Shown piece after piece: positions 52,868-63,858 of a DNA stretch of 64,000 nucleotides. Where the stretch lies: positions 40,208,001-40,272,000 of the forward strand of contig CM069873.1 in assembly GCA_036172665.1 (NCBI GenBank). The letters run 5' to 3'. Each line of letters begins with the position of its first letter. Position 1 is the first letter of the stretch. The notes below the pieces were generated by a model that made no database searches, was not told the DNA's origin, and was given only the letters and a program-made list of their open reading frames with translations. Origin of the DNA: Prosopocoilus inquinatus. Lineage: Eukaryota > Arthropoda > Insecta > Coleoptera > Lucanidae. The position numbers were made by a program, and so were the translations under genes.

Positions 52868-53683
52868 ATGAAAAAAATGTCCGAGTTTCAAGGAATACAG
52901 CCGATCTGCATGGAAGGAAATGTTGCTGAAAACTGGAAATTATGGCGTCAGCGGTTTGAAAATTATTTACTGGCCACGGAGTACAGTAAAAAATCTGAAA
53001 CTACTCAGAGTGCGCAATTATTACACTACATAGGAGAGGAAGGTTTCCGTATTTACAATACTTTTACTTTTGCCGATGAGGAAAAAAGTAAGTTAAAAGT
53101 GTTACTTCAAAAATTTGAAGATTATTTTATACCAAAAAAGAGTGTGGAATATGAACGACACAAATTTTTTATTCGGAAACAATTAGAAGAAGAAACCGTT
53201 GAACAATACGCAACTGCTTTAAAAAATTTAGCTCTATCTTGTGAATTTAATGAGCTGAAAGAAAGTTTGATTAAAAGCATTTTAACATGCGGATTAAAAA
53301 GTGAAGAAATGAGACAAAGACTTCTAGGGAATTTCTTTAGAAGAAGCTATAAAAATTTGTCGGGTGATGGAAGAATCCAGAACAATATCTGATGAAGTAG
53401 CTAAGAAAAACTTTGCAGTTAATGCATTACGTCATAAAGATACAGAAAAAAGAAAAAAGAAGATTAAGGAAGAAACTGTTTACAAATCAGGGAGCGGAAA
53501 GCAAAGATTTCTGAAATCAACGGTTGCGGGACCCTCAAAAAATAAAACCGTACAGGAACATTATAACTGTGGTCGTTGCGGCAGATACCACCAACCCCGT
53601 CAGTGTCCAGCATATAACAAGTTATGTAATTTGTGTAAAGTGAAAGGTCATTTTGCCCAAATGTGTTTTAAAAAAGTGCATAT
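52868..53683 (+). pseudogene. gag: Gypsy gag with zinc knuckles, frameshifted and truncated
   Basis: 52868-53340 is a capsid-type gag (NWKLWRQRFENYLLATEY; FIRKQLEEETVEQYATAL). A frameshift near 53330 moves to the 53364 frame (EESRTISDEVAKKN). That frame leads to two cysteine clusters, CGRCGRYHQPRQCPAYNKLC and CNLCKVKGHFAQMC. Coding is cut at 53683 by the 3' LTR of element C, so pol is missing. The gag is of the K02A2.6-like type, distinct from A/B and C. Confidence 0.78.
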
Positions 53684-54060
53684 TGTCACGAACCTGAAAA
53701 GATCGAGGGTCGCAAAGGGGGGTTGCTCAGAGGGAGCACTCGCTAGCTAGTAGCGGAGGTACCTTAACGGAATGCTGGAAAGTTAAAAATAAAAATAACC
53801 ATACCTTTCAGAAGCGGTTTATTTGCAAAAACTCAAAGAATCACTTCAGCAAGCAGAGCCCGGTAACCGCCAGGTGACGTCCACGGCACCGCACACACAC
53901 ACGCCCCCTGTCTGTCTGTCTATCTCCGCGCGACGCGTTTTCCTAGCGGTTTTATTATGCCTGCCTGCTGAAGTCAGCAAATCATTTATCCCAATCTATA
54001 ACTAATTAATTAAAACAGTTATAACAATAATTGATACCTACCTTAGCATCATTTGTGGCA
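53684..54060 (-). repeat. 3' LTR of element C
   Basis: Plus-strand TGTCACGAAC .. TTTGTGGCA, 377 bp with TG...CA ends; the right end abuts the polypurine tract. On the minus strand it contains AATAAA (near 53824) and a GC-rich R/U5-like part with a short CA repeat. The limits are inferred from TG/CA ends, the tract and the break in the host gag, since the partner LTR is not visible. Confidence 0.65.
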
Positions 54061-55606: not shown

Positions 55607-57508
55607 TTAATGTAGACTCGACTCTGATGTAGATGCTTTAAGATCAATCTTACAACTTCTCCCGTCTGGCAAGACAAAGATTCCCTCATCGTACTGTTTT
55701 GAACCAACAATTCCTTGCGAATCCCTTTTTGTCACTTTATTTGCACATGTTCTTACTTTTAAATAACACCAAATTATAATAACTATACCAATTACAGTTA
55801 ATACCGTGGCCGTGGTAATGAATCCTATGTGTGTGTTTCTTCTGAAATTAAAATCTAAATCTAGATCGTCAATATCTTTTAACACCTCATCTAAATTTCT
55901 ACTGTTTTCTTTTAGTCTACTTCCTTTAACTAAGTCTTCCAACTTATAAAAATTTATTTTGTCAAGGTCAGCAATCAATGGATTTATTAAATTTCTTTCT
56001 GTTGTGTTGAAATGAAAGAATTTCCAGCGTGATGAATATTGAATACTTTTTGTAAACTTAACTGAATGAACTGGATTTAAAATTATGTTTTTGGAAAACC
56101 CTTTGCACTCTTCAGATAGTGTAATTCTTCCTGTACCCCATAATTCTATATACTCAATTTTTTGGTTATTTTTGCAATTAACAGTCATTGTTTCTCTGTT
56201 TGGTGCTACGAAAATCCATGAGTTATAAACGCCTGACTCAATAAATTTTGTTCTATTCAAATAAATGATATGTCTTTCACATACATTGGGCAATTCTTTT
56301 ACTGGCCGAAATAACTGAACTTCACATGATTGTTGTGAGTCAGATAATATTGGTTTTTCATAATTTAAAATGTAGTTTCTGTTTTCTGAAATAAAACAAT
56401 TCTGAAATTCACTTTCATCTAAATGAAAATATTTATTGTGCAGTTCATTAATTGCTAAATATCGAAATTCATTGTTAATAAATATAAAGTTGTTGTCATG
56501 TAGTCTAATTGGAACTGATACAGTTTTAAATAAAAGGTAAGGATTTACATGAACTAATGGAATTTTTAAAGCACAATTCAATTTTGATTGTAGAATAAAA
56601 ACGTTTACCTTTAAAATTCGCCACAAAAGTGTATTATCCTCATGATCTAAAATATTAAATGGTAATTTTAGCCCTGGTGGAATATGGTTAATAATTGTAT
56701 TTAGTTGTTCCATGATAGTCGTGGGTGTAATTAATAAGGGGTGCAAAATTCCTTGCTTCGCAGCAACTAATACATTTACAAGATTCGTTGTTTCTAACTG
56801 ATATTGATCAATTAAAAGAGTTAACAAAGCTACATGATCCTTCAGTCGTCTATCTATTTTATAAATAAAATCGATGTTGGTTAAAGTATTGTTAACCAAA
56901 AATTTTAATTTTTGAAAATTTTCGAGAATAATTTTTTCATTGTGCTGAAAATGATCAATAGTATTATTTAAAGAATCCAAAGTTGATTTAACGACAGAAG
57001 TTTGTTTGGCTAAAATTTTACTCATTTGTTTTTCGTTTTTTGTCAATGCTCCTATTGCTTTCTCGAAATGTTCTTCATCTTCTGTAGTTAAGGTTCCAAA
57101 CAAAACTTTTGAAGCTTTACCTACAATATCAAAATACCCTCTTTTTACTCGAACGTGGCCAATGAAACTTGGTATTACATTTCTTTCCCAAGTTACCCGA
57201 TTCATAGTTTGATTTATTAATTTAATGTAATTGCCACATAGTTCATTTTTCTCAAGCAAAGGTTCATTACAGATTTCTGTTGTTTCCCTAAACATATTTT
57301 TCAGTTGAACAAATTTATCATCGTATGACTCTAAATCGATGTAAGTAATAATATTCCAAAAAGTATTAGTCAGATATAGATTACCTACATCTTCAAATAA
57401 AATTCCTGATGTTTTTTCTAACGATTCGACTTTATATGGAATTTTTACGTCTTCTTCTCCATATCCAAATGTGAAAAATATCAAGTATAAGAAATAATAT
57501 AACTCCAT
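55607..57508 (-). CDS. env: Envelope glycoprotein, baculovirus F-like (element C)
   Basis: 633 residues, uninterrupted. Residues 1-17 are a hydrophobic signal peptide. A furin-type site RVKR lies at 120-123, followed by a hydrophobic GYFDIVGKASK fusion-peptide-like start. A long helical, coiled-coil-prone region follows (about 140-235). A transmembrane segment lies near 560-585, with a 48-residue cytoplasmic tail. This is the plan of the baculovirus F / errantivirus Env family, class I membrane fusion proteins. The start is the first ATG after a good splice acceptor at 57531-57532, fitting expression from a spliced mRNA. Env is open although the gag and pol of the same copy are broken. Confidence 0.88.
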   Translation of the reverse strand: MELYYFLYLIFFTFGYGEEDVKIPYKVESLEKTSGILFEDVGNLYLTNTFWNIITYIDLESYDDKFVQLKNMFRETTEICNEPLLEKNELCGNYIKLINQTMNRVTWERNVIPSFIGHVRVKRGYFDIVGKASKVLFGTLTTEDEEHFEKAIGALTKNEKQMSKILAKQTSVVKSTLDSLNNTIDHFQHNEKIILENFQKLKFLVNNTLTNIDFIYKIDRRLKDHVALLTLLIDQYQLETTNLVNVLVAAKQGILHPLLITPTTIMEQLNTIINHIPPGLKLPFNILDHEDNTLLWRILKVNVFILQSKLNCALKIPLVHVNPYLLFKTVSVPIRLHDNNFIFINNEFRYLAINELHNKYFHLDESEFQNCFISENRNYILNYEKPILSDSQQSCEVQLFRPVKELPNVCERHIIYLNRTKFIESGVYNSWIFVAPNRETMTVNCKNNQKIEYIELWGTGRITLSEECKGFSKNIILNPVHSVKFTKSIQYSSRWKFFHFNTTERNLINPLIADLDKINFYKLEDLVKGSRLKENSRNLDEVLKDIDDLDLDFNFRRNTHIGFITTATVLTVIGIVIIIWCYLKVRTCANKVTKRDSQGIVGSKQYDEGIFVLPDGRSCKIDLKASTSESSLH

Positions 57509-57664: not shown

Positions 57665-59092
57665 TTATGGCATCCATTTTTCGTAATAAGGAGCTAAACG
57701 CGAAATGTGAACTGTCTCTCGTTTGGCCTTTTTGCCTTTTCCCGATTCTATAACGTAATTTAAGTTATTTCGTTTTTCAACTATCGTATATGGGCCAAAA
57801 TATTTTGGTTGTAACTTGTCGCTCTTTCCTACTTGTCTGATGAACATTTTTAATTTTACCTTATCTCCTACTTCAAAACTCGCATTACGATGTTTTTCGT
57901 CATATCGTGTTTTATCAATTTTTTGTTGTTTAATAATATTATTACGAGCTTCTTCTCTTAACTTTATAATTGCTTTTTGATTACGCAATGCAAAATCAGT
58001 TGTCATTAACTGATTTATTTGAGCATCGGATGGTAAAACAGGTTCTCTGCCATAAACTAAAGAGAAAGGGCTACATTTGATAGTTTCCTGACGAGTGGTA
58101 TTATATGCAAATACGCAATGAGGAAGGAAGACATCCCAATCCTTTTGAGACGTGGAACAATATTTACTCAACATGTCTGCCAACGTTTTGTTTAGCCGTT
58201 CGGTGAGTCCGTTGGTAGAGGGTTTGTAAGCTGTAGTAAAACTACTCCCTGTGCCTAGCAACCTTAATAACTCTGTGACGAGACGTGACATGAAGACAGC
58301 TCCCCTGTCGCTGAGTAACTTTTTTGGTGAACCATGTCGACAAATGATCTGCTGCATGATAAATTTTGCAACAGCTTCTGCTTTACCACTAGGAAGGGCT
58401 TTGGCCTCCGCCCACCTAGTCGCATAATCTGTCGCCACAACGATAAATGTACAACCAGAATTGCTTTTTCGAAAAGGGCCTAGAAGATCTATACCAACCA
58501 TTTCGAAAGGATTTCCTACTTCGATCGGATTTAATAATCCCGCAGGTTTTTGATTTAACCCTTTACGCATTTGGCAATCAGGACATCCCTTAATATATTT
58601 TTCTACATCGCGCTTCATACCTTCCCAAAAGTATTTTTTTCTAATTTTGTCTAATGTTCGAGAAATTCCTAAATGTCCGCTAACAGGTTCATCGTGATTA
58701 TTATATAAAATTTCTGCGCGTATATCTGCTGGTATTACTAGTAATTTCGTTTCTGTGTTTGGTTGAATTTTATATAAAATGCCGTTTATAATTTCAAAAT
58801 TTTTAGCTGCCCTTTGTAAAGCCGGTCCACCGAATTGTTCATCGTTAATAGCTGCAATAATCTCTTGTATTCGTGCATCCTTAGATTGTAAGTTGATTAA
58901 TTCCTTTGTTGAAATTAAAAAAGATGGAACCTCTAAAGCTTTAGATTGATCGAATGTAGTTGCCTCCGTACAGGGATATCTAGAAAGAGCATCTGCATCC
59001 TTATTTGCAGATCCTTTTTTATGAAAAATTTTATACGAATATTCCATTAATTTGAGTGCCCATCGAACTAACCTGCTACCGGGAGTTTTTAA
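57665..59092 (-). pseudogene. pol: Pol C-terminal part: RNase H end and integrase (element C)
   Basis: The listed start Met at 59047 is inside the RNase H/tether region; coding is continuous with the RT segment except for one in-frame TAA at 59093-59095. The integrase HHCC finger (H-x6-HLG .. CPDCQMRKG) is followed by the DDE core: DLLGPF, SDRGAVF and TNGLTERLNKT, with ordinary D-D-35-E order. A basic C-terminal GPY-like module (FGPYTIVEKRNN) ends at PYYEKWMP. It inserts cDNA into the genome. The domain itself looks intact, but the upstream stop uncouples it from RT. Confidence 0.85.
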
Positions 59093-60523
59093 TTATTGAA
59101 GCCAGCAAAGAGAATGGTGATCAGTTACTATTATGAAATTTTTTAAGCTCCAAAGATACGATCTGAAGTACTCAACTGCCCAAACTGCAGCCAAACATTC
59201 TAATTCACTTATTGTATAATTTTTCTCATACGGAGTTAGAGTGCGAGAAATATAAGACAAAGGATGAAGTTTACTAGATATATGATCTCTTTGAAGTAGA
59301 ACAGCTCCAATACCCACACCACTAGCATCTACGTGTAATTCTGTATCCGCCAATGGATTGAAATGATGTAAAAGAGGTGGACTTGCAAGCTTAGATTTCA
59401 GTGTATTAAATGCAGTTTCTTGAGATTTTTCCCAGATGAAATTCGACTTGGATCCGATAATATTATAAAGAGGTTTAGCTATAATTGAGAAACCAGGAAT
59501 GAATCTTCTGTAGTAATTGCATAAACCTAAGAAACTCTGCACATCTTTAACCTTTTTTGGAGTTGGAAAAGAAATTACCGCCTCAACTTTTCGATTGTCT
59601 GGTTGAATACCATTACCAGAGATGTTAAATCCTAGAATATTTATGTTTTTATAAGCGTACTTACATTTAACAGGTTTTAGAGTTAGACCTGCATTTCTGA
59701 TGCATTGGAAAACGTTATTTAATCGATCTAAATGTTCATCAAAAGTTTTACTTACTACTATTATATCATCTAAATAAATAGCGACCTCTTTCCATTTTAG
59801 ATCTTTAAAAACTGTATCCGTTAATCTCTGGAAAGTTCCCGGAGCATTACAGAGACCGAAACTAAGTCTATTAAATTCAAATAATCCGTCATTCGTTATG
59901 AACGCTGATTTATGCTTATCCTCTTCTTTAATCGCACACTGCCAATAACCGCTATTTAAATCTAAAGTTGTAAAATAACTATTTCCACCGAGAAAATTTA
60001 AAATGTCATCGATTAGGGGCAGCGGATAAGCGAATTTCGTTGTAATTGCATTTAGTTTTCTGTAGTCGACACAGAAACGGTAGGTGTTGTCAGGTTTTTT
60101 AACTAAGACCACTGGGCTTGCAAACTGACTATCTGAAGGACGAATTATACCTAACTCCAACATTTCTTGAATTTGATTTGAAATGATATTTCTTTCTTTA
60201 AGGCTCACTCTATAAGGACGCGATTTTACCGGTGCATTATTTCCAATGTCAATTGTGTGTTCGGTTAAATGTGTCAGTCCTAACATTGATGAATCCCATG
60301 CCATAATGTCGTTATTATTTCGAAGTAATTTACTTAACCTTTGTTTTTCTTTATCGCCCAATTCAGCACTAATATTAAAGTGTTGTTCACTTTGTACATT
60401 ACAAACAAAGTTTTTGTTAAAATCAAAATTTTCTTCATTGTAGGCTGTCATTAACAAAGTCATCAGTTTAGTATAAATAACCCAATACTGTTCCTTTACG
60501 TAATGTGGAAGCAAAGTTTCCAT
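59093..60523 (-). pseudogene. pol: Pol central part: reverse transcriptase and RNase H (element C)
   Basis: 476 open residues. RT motifs include YRFCVDYRKLNAITTKFAYPL, LDLNSGYWQ, FGLCNAPGTFQRL and the catalytic YLDDIIVVS. RNase H begins with HVDASGVGIGAVL and runs to the premature TAA after CWLQ. The upstream reading comes from another frame (ending near 60468), so a frameshift also separates RT from the protease-macrodomain part. Ty3/gypsy affiliation is clear. Confidence 0.87.
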
Positions 60524-60939: not shown

Positions 60940-62121
60940 TCATAGATCAACGCTACTATTTTGTATGGTATTGGATGCTTCTGTTTCCGTTTCCTTGTTT
61001 AAATGATATATTTTGATATTAATATTGGAATTTTTGAAGACATACAAGATCATATTTTTTATTATATCCCATTTACATCCATCTAACCCACAGGCAATTT
61101 TGGGTATTGCTAATTTATTGATCTCGTTTATTGTCATGTGTTTTTTCAAATTGCATAAGCTATTAAAAATTGCTTCATAAGTAGGTTTTTCATTTGACTT
61201 GTTTTTTGTGACTAAATAATATATAAAACGCTTATTGATTTTGAGGAATGCTAAACCTCCCACTTTAGGATTTTGTTTTTTAAGTTGCGTAACATTGTTA
61301 AATTTTTCTTTAAAAACCCTTGCGATTCCCGAGGACATTTGAAAATCTCGCGCCACACAATGAGCTAAACTGTATTGTTTCGATATTTTAAATAAATCTC
61401 CGCATTCTTCCTTAATATTTGAATACGTTAACGTTGATTGAGAATGCTTAACAAAATCTGAAAAACATTTTTCGTAACTAATGGAAAAATCTTCATTTTC
61501 TTTGAAAATATATGGGGTATCCTGACCTATGCTAATACTAGAACGCTGCTGACCGTCGTTCGCTATCGTGTTACTTCCAAAGTCAACGTCCGTGTCGTTC
61601 TTAAACATTTTTATGCGGTCTTTTTTAAAAGTTACAGTATTATTAATGAAATTTATATTGGCCTGATTGTCCTTCAAAAAGGGATACCCTAAAATAATAT
61701 GTGGTGCTAATTTATCAACAACTAAAGCTTTTATAGGATAGCTTTCTTCGTTTATGTTAATTACGATTTCAGTTATACCTATAGGATAAACGTGATAATT
61801 ATTTATTGTATTTAGGATTAATTCCTCTTTTAAAGGAGAAATTTTATTGGCAAAACAAGGTCTTACTAAATTGTATGATGAGCCAGTATCTAATATCGCT
61901 GTTATATATTTATTGTTTACTTTTCCTTTAATTTTAAGTATATTCGTATCTTTTAAAAATACAGGCGCTACGGTGGCTGGCGTTGTATTATAAAATGTCC
62001 AATTTTTACTGTGACCTTTATTAACATTTTTATTATTATTACTTAGGCCCTCGCCGTTTGATTCCAACAAGACAGAATTTAGGGCCTCGTGAAATTCTGT
62101 CCGTTCCGGTTTCCCTGCGCT
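60940..62121 (-). CDS. pol: Pol N-terminal part: aspartic protease fused to a TARG1/OARD1-like macrodomain
   Basis: The pol frame opens at 62121 and is entered by -1 frameshift at 62109-62115. The numbering below starts at the codon at 62070. Retropepsin: DTG at 61-63 and IILGYPF at 125-131. Residues ~214-357 form a macrodomain of the TARG1/OARD1 ADP-ribose glycohydrolase type: GDLF (224-227), SLAHCVA (234-240), SSGIA (246-250), YYLVTK ending at K289, KPTYEAIFNSL, and IACGLDGCKWD with D330. K289 and D330 correspond to the Lys84/Asp125 catalytic pair of human TARG1. The likely role is removal of ADP-ribose from proteins. An in-frame TGA (60940-60942) follows; it could be a mutation or a natural end. 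Confidence 0.85.
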   Translation of the reverse strand, partial: SAGKPERTEFHEALNSVLLESNGEGLSNNNKNVNKGHSKNWTFYNTTPATVAPVFLKDTNILKIKGKVNNKYITAILDTGSSYNLVRPCFANKISPLKEELILNTINNYHVYPIGITEIVININEESYPIKALVVDKLAPHIILGYPFLKDNQANINFINNTVTFKKDRIKMFKNDTDVDFGSNTIANDGQQRSSISIGQDTPYIFKENEDFSISYEKCFSDFVKHSQSTLTYSNIKEECGDLFKISKQYSLAHCVARDFQMSSGIARVFKEKFNNVTQLKKQNPKVGGLAFLKINKRFIYYLVTKNKSNEKPTYEAIFNSLCNLKKHMTINEINKLAIPKIACGLDGCKWDIIKNMILYVFKNSNINIKIYHLNKETETEASNTIQNSSVDL

Positions 62122-63858
62122 TTATTATATTGTTGATTTTTGTTAAAATATTCAGAATTTTTATTACATATCAATTCATTGTAACGTGACGGATAATTAG
62201 CTCTTTGAAAATTGTTTTGGGTTTGATAGCAAATATTAGCAGTATGGCCACTTCGATGACATAATTGACAAATAGGTCTGCCGTTCAATGTTCTACTGCG
62301 ATTTTGTAACGTGAAAGAATTATTTGGAATTCTATTTATGTTATTAGTAACTGGATCTGGTTTTTGGTTAACTCCCCCACGGTGACTCTGATAATTTTGC
62401 CTATATTGATATAAGTTGTTATAGTTCCGTTTCGTGAAATTCTGATTGTAGTTAGGATAAAATTTCTGATTTTGATTAAACTTGACCTTAGTAAGCTCTA
62501 ATTTCATTTGCTTCAATTGCTCTGCAATGTCTGTTACAGTATTCTGTAAAACTTGTGAATTTTGTAGAAATTGTGAATTTTGTACCGAATGTGAGTTCTG
62601 TGACGTAGAACCATTCAGTTTACTTATGGTTTTCGACAGTATCTCTGTTTTGAAAGAGTGACCTTCTCGTTCTGTTTCAGCTACATATTCAATGAAATTT
62701 TCAATTTCCCCGAGCGATGAAGGACGCGTTAAATTTATCATATATCTGTGATATGGTAATAACCCTGCAATAACTCGTTTAATAATGTCCGTTTCGGCCA
62801 TATTTGGGTTAACCTCGTAACATAAGTCTAAAATATCGTAGTAATATGTTATTAATTGCTCATCTGTTTGTTGTCTGCGAGAAATTAATCTAGCTTCAAT
62901 ATCTGTATCGTAACTCGGACCGATAAATTTGTTTTTAAATTCTTTTGTTGTCAATGTCCAGTCGGCATTTGGATGTCTTTTAACAAATTCCCGGAACCAC
63001 ACTGCAGCCGAATTTCGTAAAGAATTACCAAAATAACATAATTGAAGTGTATCATCCCACGCGTTCGACTGTGCAGCTAATTTATAGTTTTTTAAGAAAA
63101 AAATTGCGTCATCGGAGGACGGATCAAAAATAGGTGGTGGGAAATATTTCGGTTTTGTAGGAGTTCGATTTTGAAGTAACATTGATAATGTGTTATTGAC
63201 TGTAGCAGGATTACTGTTTGAGAAATTATGAGATTCTTGTGATTCTAAAATAAAAGTGTCCGCTATGTGAGCATCCCTAACTGGTTTAGAACTTTTTCTA
63301 GAATTAGCTTGAGGAAATCTCACAGATTCATTAATTGTTTCTGTTGGCAACTGGAATCTTGTTGATTTTGGAATGGCACCGGTTTTTTTTGATATTAGAA
63401 TTTGGGGTAATTTCTGAGCCAACCACCTCGTCATAAGAGTTATCATTTGTCATACGAACTGACTCGAACATTTTTGATGAATTATTATCTCGGTCAAAAG
63501 CAATTTCGGGGGGTAGTACACTGTTAATAGAGAAACTTGAGGGCGGCGACGGCGGGGGTATTTCTGAATTATCGGAAAGGCATTTAAATTTATTTATTTC
63601 TGGAGGAGTACTTTCCGGAAGAACTGTAATAGTGGTCGGTTCATTAATTGTAGTAACTATCGATGAAATTGGAGGAACCACGGGTTCTAAATATTCACTT
63701 GCGGCAGGAACGGGTGTTTGACTAGGAGAACGCGGAATTAGCGAGCTCCTCGCGCTAGGGAAAAATACATCCTTTTCCAAATTTATCTCTATATCGTATT
63801 TATTTTTGTCGTCTTCTTTGCTTTGTGAACGAGTCTTAGGTTTTTGTCGTTTATCCAT
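62079..63858 (-). pseudogene. gag: Gag of element C, one frameshift
   Basis: The N-terminal frame is 63858 to ~63385 (basic start MDKRQKPKTRSQSKEDD, then a proline-rich region). The second frame runs to 62079 and holds the capsid-like region (YFPPPIFDPSSDDAIFFLK; LRNSAAVWFREF), a Gln/Asn-rich repeat (NSHSVQNSQFLQNSQVLQN), an Arg/Asn-rich part and a CCHC knuckle (CQLCHRSGHTANIC). The shift occurs at a run of eight T (plus strand ~63384-63391). It could be a real mutation or a homopolymer error. The total would be about 590 codons. Confidence 0.8.
62109..62115 (-). promoter_or_regulatory. -1 frameshift heptamer G GGA AAC
   Basis: In the gag frame the codons are CAG GGA AAC; slipping back one base enters the pol frame. 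The heptamer GGGAAAC is known from retroviral gag-pro junctions. It lies 28 nt upstream of the gag stop. Confidence 0.75.

What the first reader, a model, noticed from the sequence alone, without database searches (positions are those of the whole stretch)
60940..62121. Retroelement Pol carries a TARG1/OARD1-like macrodomain between protease and RT
The same open frame that begins with a retropepsin (DTG, ILGYPF) continues into a macrodomain with the GDLF, SLAHC, SGIA, TK and CGLD motifs of the TARG1 branch of ADP-ribosyl glycohydrolases. The residues matching the catalytic Lys and Asp are both kept (K289, D330). Macrodomains that reverse host ADP-ribosylation are known in several RNA viruses. 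I know of no described example built into a Ty3/gypsy or errantivirus Pol. It may be a captured host gene used against PARP-type antiviral defence, or to help integration-linked DNA repair.
Basis: partly seen in the sequence, partly recalled or inferred. Interest (0 to 1): 0.92.

Follow-up and report, generated by a model that had tools for sequence, protein, structure and literature searches.

The report
Retroelement polymerase with built-in ADP-ribose eraser
A retrovirus-like element in an insect-like genome carries, inside its main polyprotein, a domain closely related to the cellular enzyme TARG1, which strips ADP-ribose marks from DNA, RNA and proteins; related elements carry the same domain at three other places, which suggests that it is repeatedly useful to them.

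Summary
Confirmed, and larger than reported. On the minus strand, a Ty3/gypsy Pol frame carries a TARG1/OARD1-type macrodomain (60991-61434) between protease and RT. It matches human TARG1 (E 1.3e-32); its model (pLDDT 94) overlays TARG1 with TM 0.98. It is not a one-off: this genome holds at least 14 full-length copies at 94-100% identity (151 matches listed in all). The catalytic Lys and the conserved Asp are kept in 50 of 50 aligned retroelement rows, and dN/dS is 0.14-0.29 in the seven diverged pairs of 20.

The domain sits at four places in Ty3/gypsy Pol: before PR, PR-RT, RNaseH-IN and after IN; the last three occur in this genome. The RT tree rejects one clade of carriers (p 3e-6); the macrodomain tree does not reject a single origin (p 0.17).

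Most likely it is an active ADP-ribosyl hydrolase delivered in Gag-Pol that protects cDNA, RNA or Pol proteins from host ADP-ribosylation; activity and substrate are inferred. A precedent exists: macro domain ORFs in teleost retroviruses. Ten library searches showed none inside a Ty3/gypsy Pol.

The parts
53683..53892 (-). 3' LTR (210 bp matched). The matching 5' LTR lies outside the window, at 64421-64630 in window numbering
   Evidence: blastn 99.5% over 210 bp, one mismatch; target-site duplication not resolved
55607..57508 (-). env: baculovirus F-like fusion protein
   Evidence: PF12259 E 2.9e-37
57665..59047 (-). Pol C-terminal part: integrase (H2C2, rve, p58_C)
   Evidence: Pfam
59093..60523 (-). 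Pol: reverse transcriptase and RNase H. Frame differs from the macrodomain frame and ends in RNase H: this copy is broken
   Evidence: Pfam RVT_1 5.1e-31; Ty3 RT 4ol8 E 2e-88; frames
60940..62070 (-). Open frame with protease and macrodomain (376 aa)
60991..61434 (-). TARG1/OARD1-type macrodomain
   Evidence: phmmer to 4j5r 1.3e-32; custom profile E 2.5e-68, the window domain being one of its seeds; AlphaFold2 pLDDT 94.1; Foldseek TARG1 TMt 0.98
61204..61206 (-). Codon of K289, equivalent of TARG1 catalytic K84
   Evidence: alignment, codon; K84 named as the catalytic lysine in PMC8501950 (passage)
61081..61083 (-). Codon of D330, the invariant Asp of the CGLD motif (D125 of TARG1; number and role recalled)
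   Evidence: alignment, codon
61591..61950 (-). Retropepsin-type protease (DTG ... ILGYPF)
   Evidence: PF08284 5.9e-6
62109..62115 (-). Heptamer GGGAAAC in -1 frameshift phase, inside the gag-pol overlap (pol frame opens below 62124, gag stop at 62081)
   Evidence: a consensus match only
62079..63446 (-). gag (Ty3 capsid-like)
   Evidence: PF03732 6.7e-8, PF19259 1.1e-7

Best explanation
An env-bearing Ty3/gypsy element whose Pol carries a captured TARG1-type ADP-ribosyl hydrolase that is probably active. Shown: TARG1 fold and catalytic residues, purifying selection between diverged families, many copies and families, four positions in Pol, and a gag-pol overlap in -1 register with a phase-correct heptamer. 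Inferred: the macrodomain is made in Gag-Pol by frameshifting and packaged with RT and IN; in the particle or pre-integration complex it removes ADP-ribose that host transferases place on viral cDNA or RNA (terminal phosphates or bases, which TARG1 can clean) or on Gag, Pol or host proteins, so that reverse transcription and integration can finish. It would be a counter-defence or cDNA-maintenance domain, analogous in placement to the dUTPase that retroviruses acquired repeatedly (dUTPase parallel recalled).
For: TARG1 match and fold; DarG is the next structural neighbour, with a sub-cut-off NCBIfam DarG match (41 bits, cut-off 250). Catalytic Lys and conserved Asp in 50 of 50 rows (35 from this genome, many near-identical, and 15 database rows; fragments L021 and L027 dropped) and in 14 of 14 window-family copies. 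dN/dS 0.17-0.29 at dS 0.39-1.24 in five diverged pairs, and 0.14-0.19 for the window against L038/L039 where dS is saturated. Family-wide: 14 full-length copies at 94-100% identity (two with a stop inside), 151 matches listed. Four Pol positions. Phase-correct heptamer in 5 of 5 relatives' overlaps and in the window. TARG1 reverses DNA ADP-ribosylation and needs K84 (PMC8501950, passages); it removes mono-ADP-ribose from dsDNA and ssRNA termini (PMC11088682, passages).
Against: No assay, and no host transferase acting on these elements is known here. Other motif residues vary: the LAHC His is Gln in five copies (L033-L037), the GDLF Asp is Asn in three rows, the GIA Gly is Asp in P0110; one macrodomain of a two-macrodomain locus has Asn for the conserved Asp (L077), and two window-family copies have Arg for Gly in CGLD. 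Of the best 120 RT relatives listed, 119 show no macrodomain under default filters (with filters off, 1 of the 119 has a weak partial one), so the domain is dispensable for Ty3/gypsy life in general. The heptamers are weak evidence: 8-34% of shuffled overlaps hold one.
Confidence: 0.58

Rival explanations
1. The domain serves integration itself: it clears PARP-type ADP-ribosylation that host repair enzymes lay down at the gapped integration site, so repair can be completed. A repair aid, not a counter-defence.
For: Several placements are next to IN (RNaseH-macro-IN: L088, L090, P0046, P0050; after IN: L016 family, P0013, P0041 and others). TARG1 is linked to DNA repair in a review (PMC4695847, passages).
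Against: The window and many other families place it next to protease, and P0039 before protease, so there is no fixed link to IN. Nearly all of the 120 best RT relatives lack it.
Confidence: 0.25
2. It acts as an ADP-ribose reader that tethers Pol or particles to ADP-ribosylated chromatin or other sites, without needing catalysis.
For: Many macrodomains are readers (PMC11088682, passage). The pocket motifs are conserved.
Against: The catalytic Lys and conserved Asp are invariant in 50 of 50 rows; a pure reader should lose the Lys in some lineages.
Confidence: 0.1
3. It targets host proteins that silence elements, for example by reversing mono-ADP-ribosylation of heterochromatin factors.
For: A review reports that SIRT6 mono-ADP-ribosylates KAP1 to silence L1 (PMC4695847, passages).
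Against: KAP1 is a vertebrate factor (recalled). A domain made by frameshift and packaged in Pol would be scarce in the nucleus before integration (inference).
Confidence: 0.08
4. A passenger: a chance capture with relaxed selection.
For: Nine young pairs show dN/dS of 0.24-0.56, and two pairs with very few changes reach 0.85 and 1.66, as expected for decaying insertions. Some copies are broken (L021, L027; L073, L076, L078).
Against: Seven diverged pairs have dN/dS 0.14-0.29. Lys and Asp are invariant in the rows counted. There are four Pol positions and many families.
Confidence: 0.03

Closest known systems
TARG1/OARD1/C6orf130 (cellular ADP-ribosyl glycohydrolase)
   Same: About 43-44% identity to human TARG1, same fold (TMt 0.98), same catalytic Lys and conserved Asp
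   Different: Here one domain of a retroelement Pol, not a free-standing host protein; activity untested
Macro domain proteins in teleost epsilon-like endogenous retroviruses (Basta et al. 2009, as cited in PMC4977317)
   Same: A macro domain carried by an LTR retroelement
   Different: Described in the review as an additional ORF in vertebrate retroviral sequences. Here it is inside Ty3/gypsy Pol at four positions. The original paper is not held, so its macro type is unknown to me
dUTPase domains of retroviral Pol (recalled)
   Same: A nucleotide-linked host enzyme repeatedly inserted at different places of Pol
   Different: Unrelated fold and reaction
DarG macrodomain of the DarTG toxin-antitoxin system
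   Same: Next structural neighbour after TARG1 and sub-cut-off NCBIfam match
   Different: 18-21% identity; bacterial antitoxin; no DarT partner was looked for here
Viral macrodomains of alphaviruses and coronaviruses
   Same: Macro fold in a viral replication polyprotein
   Different: 15-18% identity with TM about 0.6-0.7 in the rows shown; another branch of the superfamily

Membership tests
TARG1/OARD1 macrodomain | Sequence match to TARG1 well above other macrodomains | tested here: met
   1.3e-32 to TARG1; the next chain aligned over this region (2afc) scores 0.068
TARG1/OARD1 macrodomain | Catalytic Lys (K84) and Asp of CGLD | tested here: met
   50 of 50 rows; 14 of 14 window-family copies
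TARG1/OARD1 macrodomain | TARG1 three-dimensional fold | tested here: met
   AlphaFold2 model against 4j5s, TMt 0.98, rmsd 0.6
TARG1/OARD1 macrodomain | Hydrolase activity on mono-ADP-ribose | not testable with these tools
   needs the purified domain
Ty3/gypsy LTR retroelement | gag - PR - RT - RNaseH - IN order | tested here: met
   Pfam; PDB Ty3 RT E 2e-88
Ty3/gypsy LTR retroelement | Flanking LTRs | tested here: met
   210 bp, one mismatch; one of the two lies beyond the window edge
Ty3/gypsy LTR retroelement | Target-site duplication | tested here: inconclusive
   no clear 4-6 bp duplication seen in the flanks
Errantivirus | env with Baculo_F-type fusion protein | tested here: met
   PF12259 2.9e-37
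Errantivirus | RT groups with reference errantiviruses | not tested
   no reference errantivirus RT in the set; many of the nearest RTs are unnamed or 'K02A2.6-like'
Retroviruses with macro domain (teleost) | Vertebrate retroviral RT and a separate macro ORF | tested here: not met
   Ty3-type RT; the macrodomain is inside the Pol frame

The most novel reading that the evidence does not exclude
Ty3/gypsy elements of insects have repeatedly taken up, shuffled and kept a TARG1-type ADP-ribose eraser in Pol because the host marks retroelement nucleic acid with ADP-ribose. This would be an unrecognised insect defence against reverse transcription, countered inside the particle by an enzyme fused to the replication machinery, in the way DarG answers DarT.
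Probability: 0.3. Interest if true: 0.93.

Novelty: new variant of a known kind. Interest (0 to 1): 0.82.

Why it matters
Macrodomains that erase ADP-ribose are established in some RNA viruses (recalled), but ADP-ribosylation is not known to me as a barrier to retroelements in insects. A hydrolase built into Pol at four positions, in at least three RT lineages of one genome and in beetle and metagenomic elements, says that ADP-ribosylation probably meets reverse transcription or integration often enough to be selected against. It gives a small soluble domain with a known active site and known assays, so whether hosts ADP-ribosylate retroelement nucleic acid becomes directly testable.

Tried and rejected
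Artefact or one-off insertion: rejected by copy number and by dN/dS of diverged pairs. MacroD-type or viral-type macrodomain: rejected by sequence and fold ranking; the three best PF01661 matches in the genome (L001-L003) do not match the TARG1-type profile. Relatives in IMG/VR: none confirmed. Phages carry TARG1-like genes at 34-39% identity in the 10 of 24 records shown. A single clean origin could be neither shown nor rejected from 145-147 kept columns. A host TARG1 gene as donor: the search with a beetle OARD1-like domain did not complete, so the donor is open. Target-site duplication: not found. A CCCH finger behind the L016 macrodomain: none by Pfam or pattern. In L076 and L078 the macrodomain looked 60-70% identical while the flanks were 98-99%; the DNA shows ordinary decay with indels, not a replaced domain.

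Full report
What is there. The finding is on the minus strand. From 63446 down, gag (62079-63446), a protease plus macrodomain frame (60940-62070), RT/RNaseH (59093-60523), integrase (57665-59047) and a Baculo_F env (55607-57508) follow one another. LTRs of 210 matched bp lie at 53683-53892 and, outside the window, at 64421-64630, with one mismatch, which suggests a young insertion. The window copy is broken: RT is in another frame than the macrodomain, and the frame ends again inside RNaseH.

The macrodomain. Residues 220-357 match human TARG1 at E 1.3e-32. The Pfam model only sees it weakly (18.7 bits, cut-off 22). An alignment of the domain with 42 other proteins shows the TARG1 motifs nearly invariant; K90 and D131 of the query (K289 and D330 of the frame) are invariant in all 43. 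The AlphaFold2 model has pLDDT 94.1. Foldseek ranks TARG1 chains 1 to 8, best TMt 0.98 at 0.6 A, and DarG ninth.

It is a family trait. A search of the host genome with this domain listed 151 matches (1313 first-look candidates of which 150 were scored, and more were not listed, so a lower bound; I read the surroundings of 33 loci from that list). Fourteen full-length places, the window included, have 94-100% identity; two of the 14 have a stop in the match; three without one lie in open frames of over 1000 residues, so longer open copies exist. With PF01661 alone the genome gave 39 places. I read all 39 as stretches (8 loci, 31). 36 of 39 match a TARG1-type profile. Of those 36, 27 have RT or RNaseH downstream, 7 lie after integrase, and 2 have protease upstream but no RT in the stretch. 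Protease upstream was shown only in the members scanned: L008, L032, L034, L038 by Pfam and L038, L039 by tblastn.

Four places in Pol. (1) Before protease: P0039 (macrodomain 30-167, protease 230-320, RT 439 on); P0051 has the same spacing to RT, its protease was not located. (2) Between protease and RT: the window family, the L008 and L034 families, L038, L080 family, P0053. P0048 has the domain before RT with no protease found by Pfam. (3) Between RNaseH and integrase: L088 and L090 in this genome; P0046 and P0050 as deposited beetle protein models, not checked at DNA level. (4) After integrase: L016 family in this genome, and P0013, P0024, P0041, P0045, P0052, P0080, P0110, P0145. Of the 33 loci read, 27 are PR-macro-RT (some with broken frames), 1 is PR-macro without RT in the stretch, 2 are RNaseH-macro-IN, and 3 loci at two places (L074; L077 and L089 overlap) have IN-macro followed by a second macrodomain and RT, a two-macrodomain chimera.

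Selection. Lys and Asp are kept in 50 of 50 rows (35 from this genome with at least 125 profile positions, many near-identical; 15 database rows as matched, P0137 partial); the fragments L021 and L027 were dropped before the count. Outside that count, the second macrodomain of L077 has Asn for the Asp. Of 20 pairs, seven diverged ones have dN/dS 0.14-0.29 (two of the seven at saturated dS, and the pairs share members). Nine young pairs lie at 0.24-0.56, two with very few changes at 0.85 and 1.66, and two have no synonymous change. In one pair (L008, L034) protease, macrodomain and RT show 0.17, 0.17 and 0.04, so the domain is constrained like protease and less than RT.

Origins. In an RT tree of 67 rows (20 carriers, 47 others thinned from 119 non-carrier hits), starred branches force at least 5 changes of presence and at least 3 for the PR-RT position. 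L022 and several database carriers without a full RT (P0024, P0045, P0046, P0052, P0053, P0080, P0110, P0145) are not in it. In the earlier 62-row tree one clade of all 15 carriers is rejected (p 3.2e-6), as are one clade for the nine PR-RT carriers, P0048 counted among them (p 6e-4), and for the three after-IN carriers (p 5e-14). The window clade plus P0048 is not rejected (p 0.08), and P0228, near P0048, holds a weak partial macrodomain (16 bits), so some absences are probably losses. The non-carriers are the best 119 of 5957 hits to one carrier's RT, which limits the test; changes cannot tell gain from loss. Default filters found a macrodomain in 0 of those 119, filters off in 1 (P0228). 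In 65 of them with protease and RT located the median gap is 168 residues (144-398) against 387 in L038. The macrodomain tree does not reject one clade of all retroelement domains (p 0.23 with 21 rows; p 0.166 with 27 rows). Transfer between lineages is plausible because mosaics exist: L008 and L034 are 90-97% identical in DNA over RT but 66-76% over macrodomain and linker, with macrodomain dS 1.24 against RT dS 0.30. I cannot decide between one capture with later moves and several captures.

How it would work. In five of five gag-pol overlaps examined in relatives a heptamer TTTAAAC or TTTAAAT stands in the phase for -1 frameshifting, and the window has GGGAAAC at 62115-62109 in the same phase. 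Shuffled overlaps hold some such heptamer in 8-34% of cases, and two of the five are one family, so this is suggestive only. The domain would thus be made with Pol and packaged. TARG1 reverses thymidine-linked DNA ADP-ribosylation, needing K84 (PMC8501950, passages), and removes mono-ADP-ribose from DNA and RNA ends (PMC11088682, passages). I infer that the domain erases such marks, or marks on Pol and host proteins, during reverse transcription and integration.

What is in print. Ten full-text searches of the held library listed no paper that I could see to describe a macrodomain in a Ty3/gypsy Pol. Most listed papers were seen as listings only, and one search showed 20 of 540. They did give a review of fish retroviruses that mentions macro domain proteins as additional ORFs, citing Basta et al. 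2009 (PMC4977317, passages read; the cited paper is not held). A 2025 paper on insect endogenous retroviruses has no word beginning 'macro' or 'ADP-ribos' in its main text (PMC12992720, term search only). Most subscription papers are not in this library.

Host. Pol-embedded relatives with names come from beetles (Leptinotarsa, Rhynchophorus, Molorchus), so a beetle is a guess.

Noticed in passing
L046:907-2535 and L055:441-2473 (downstream of L034 and L032): The third ORF of one macrodomain family is a Monjiviricetes (negative-strand RNA virus type) fusion glycoprotein, PF24664 E 3e-172, not Baculo_F, in 2 of 2 copies read (one of them broken): env genes differ between the families.
   Followed up: partly
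L044, L050, L051, L052 (downstream of L008, L006, L007, L012): In the L008 family the place downstream of pol holds a 192-aa ORF in 4 of 4 copies read; the two scanned (L044, L051) have a KH domain, nearest PCBP2/hnRNP K among solved structures.
   Followed up: partly
P0013, P0024, P0110, P0083: A CCCH zinc finger follows the macrodomain in these; P0013, P0024 and P0110 are after-integrase elements, P0083 shows no integrase. P0076 has a weak one.
   Followed up: partly
L074, L077/L089: Two-macrodomain chimeras: IN-macro joined to macro-RT, at two places on different contigs.
   Followed up: partly
G000:C5:47386717, 47398199, 47409681: Three matches of the 1764-aa family stand exactly 11,482 bp apart in the same orientation, like a tandem array.
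   Followed up: no
P0023, P0032, P0035, P0040, P0043: Proteins with DNA-ligase domains from metagenomes match the TARG1-like macrodomain, some with zf-PARP.
   Followed up: no
P0045: IN - chromodomain - macrodomain - weak rhabdovirus glycoprotein match in one protein.
   Followed up: no
window 60985-61473 and L059: A copy 8.4 Mb away on the same contig is identical over the macrodomain and has the same frame arrangement, so the broken form itself may have been copied or duplicated.
   Followed up: no
Fusobacterium and Lactobacillus phages (H2-H9): TARG1-like genes in phages, 35-38% identical in these rows.
   Followed up: no
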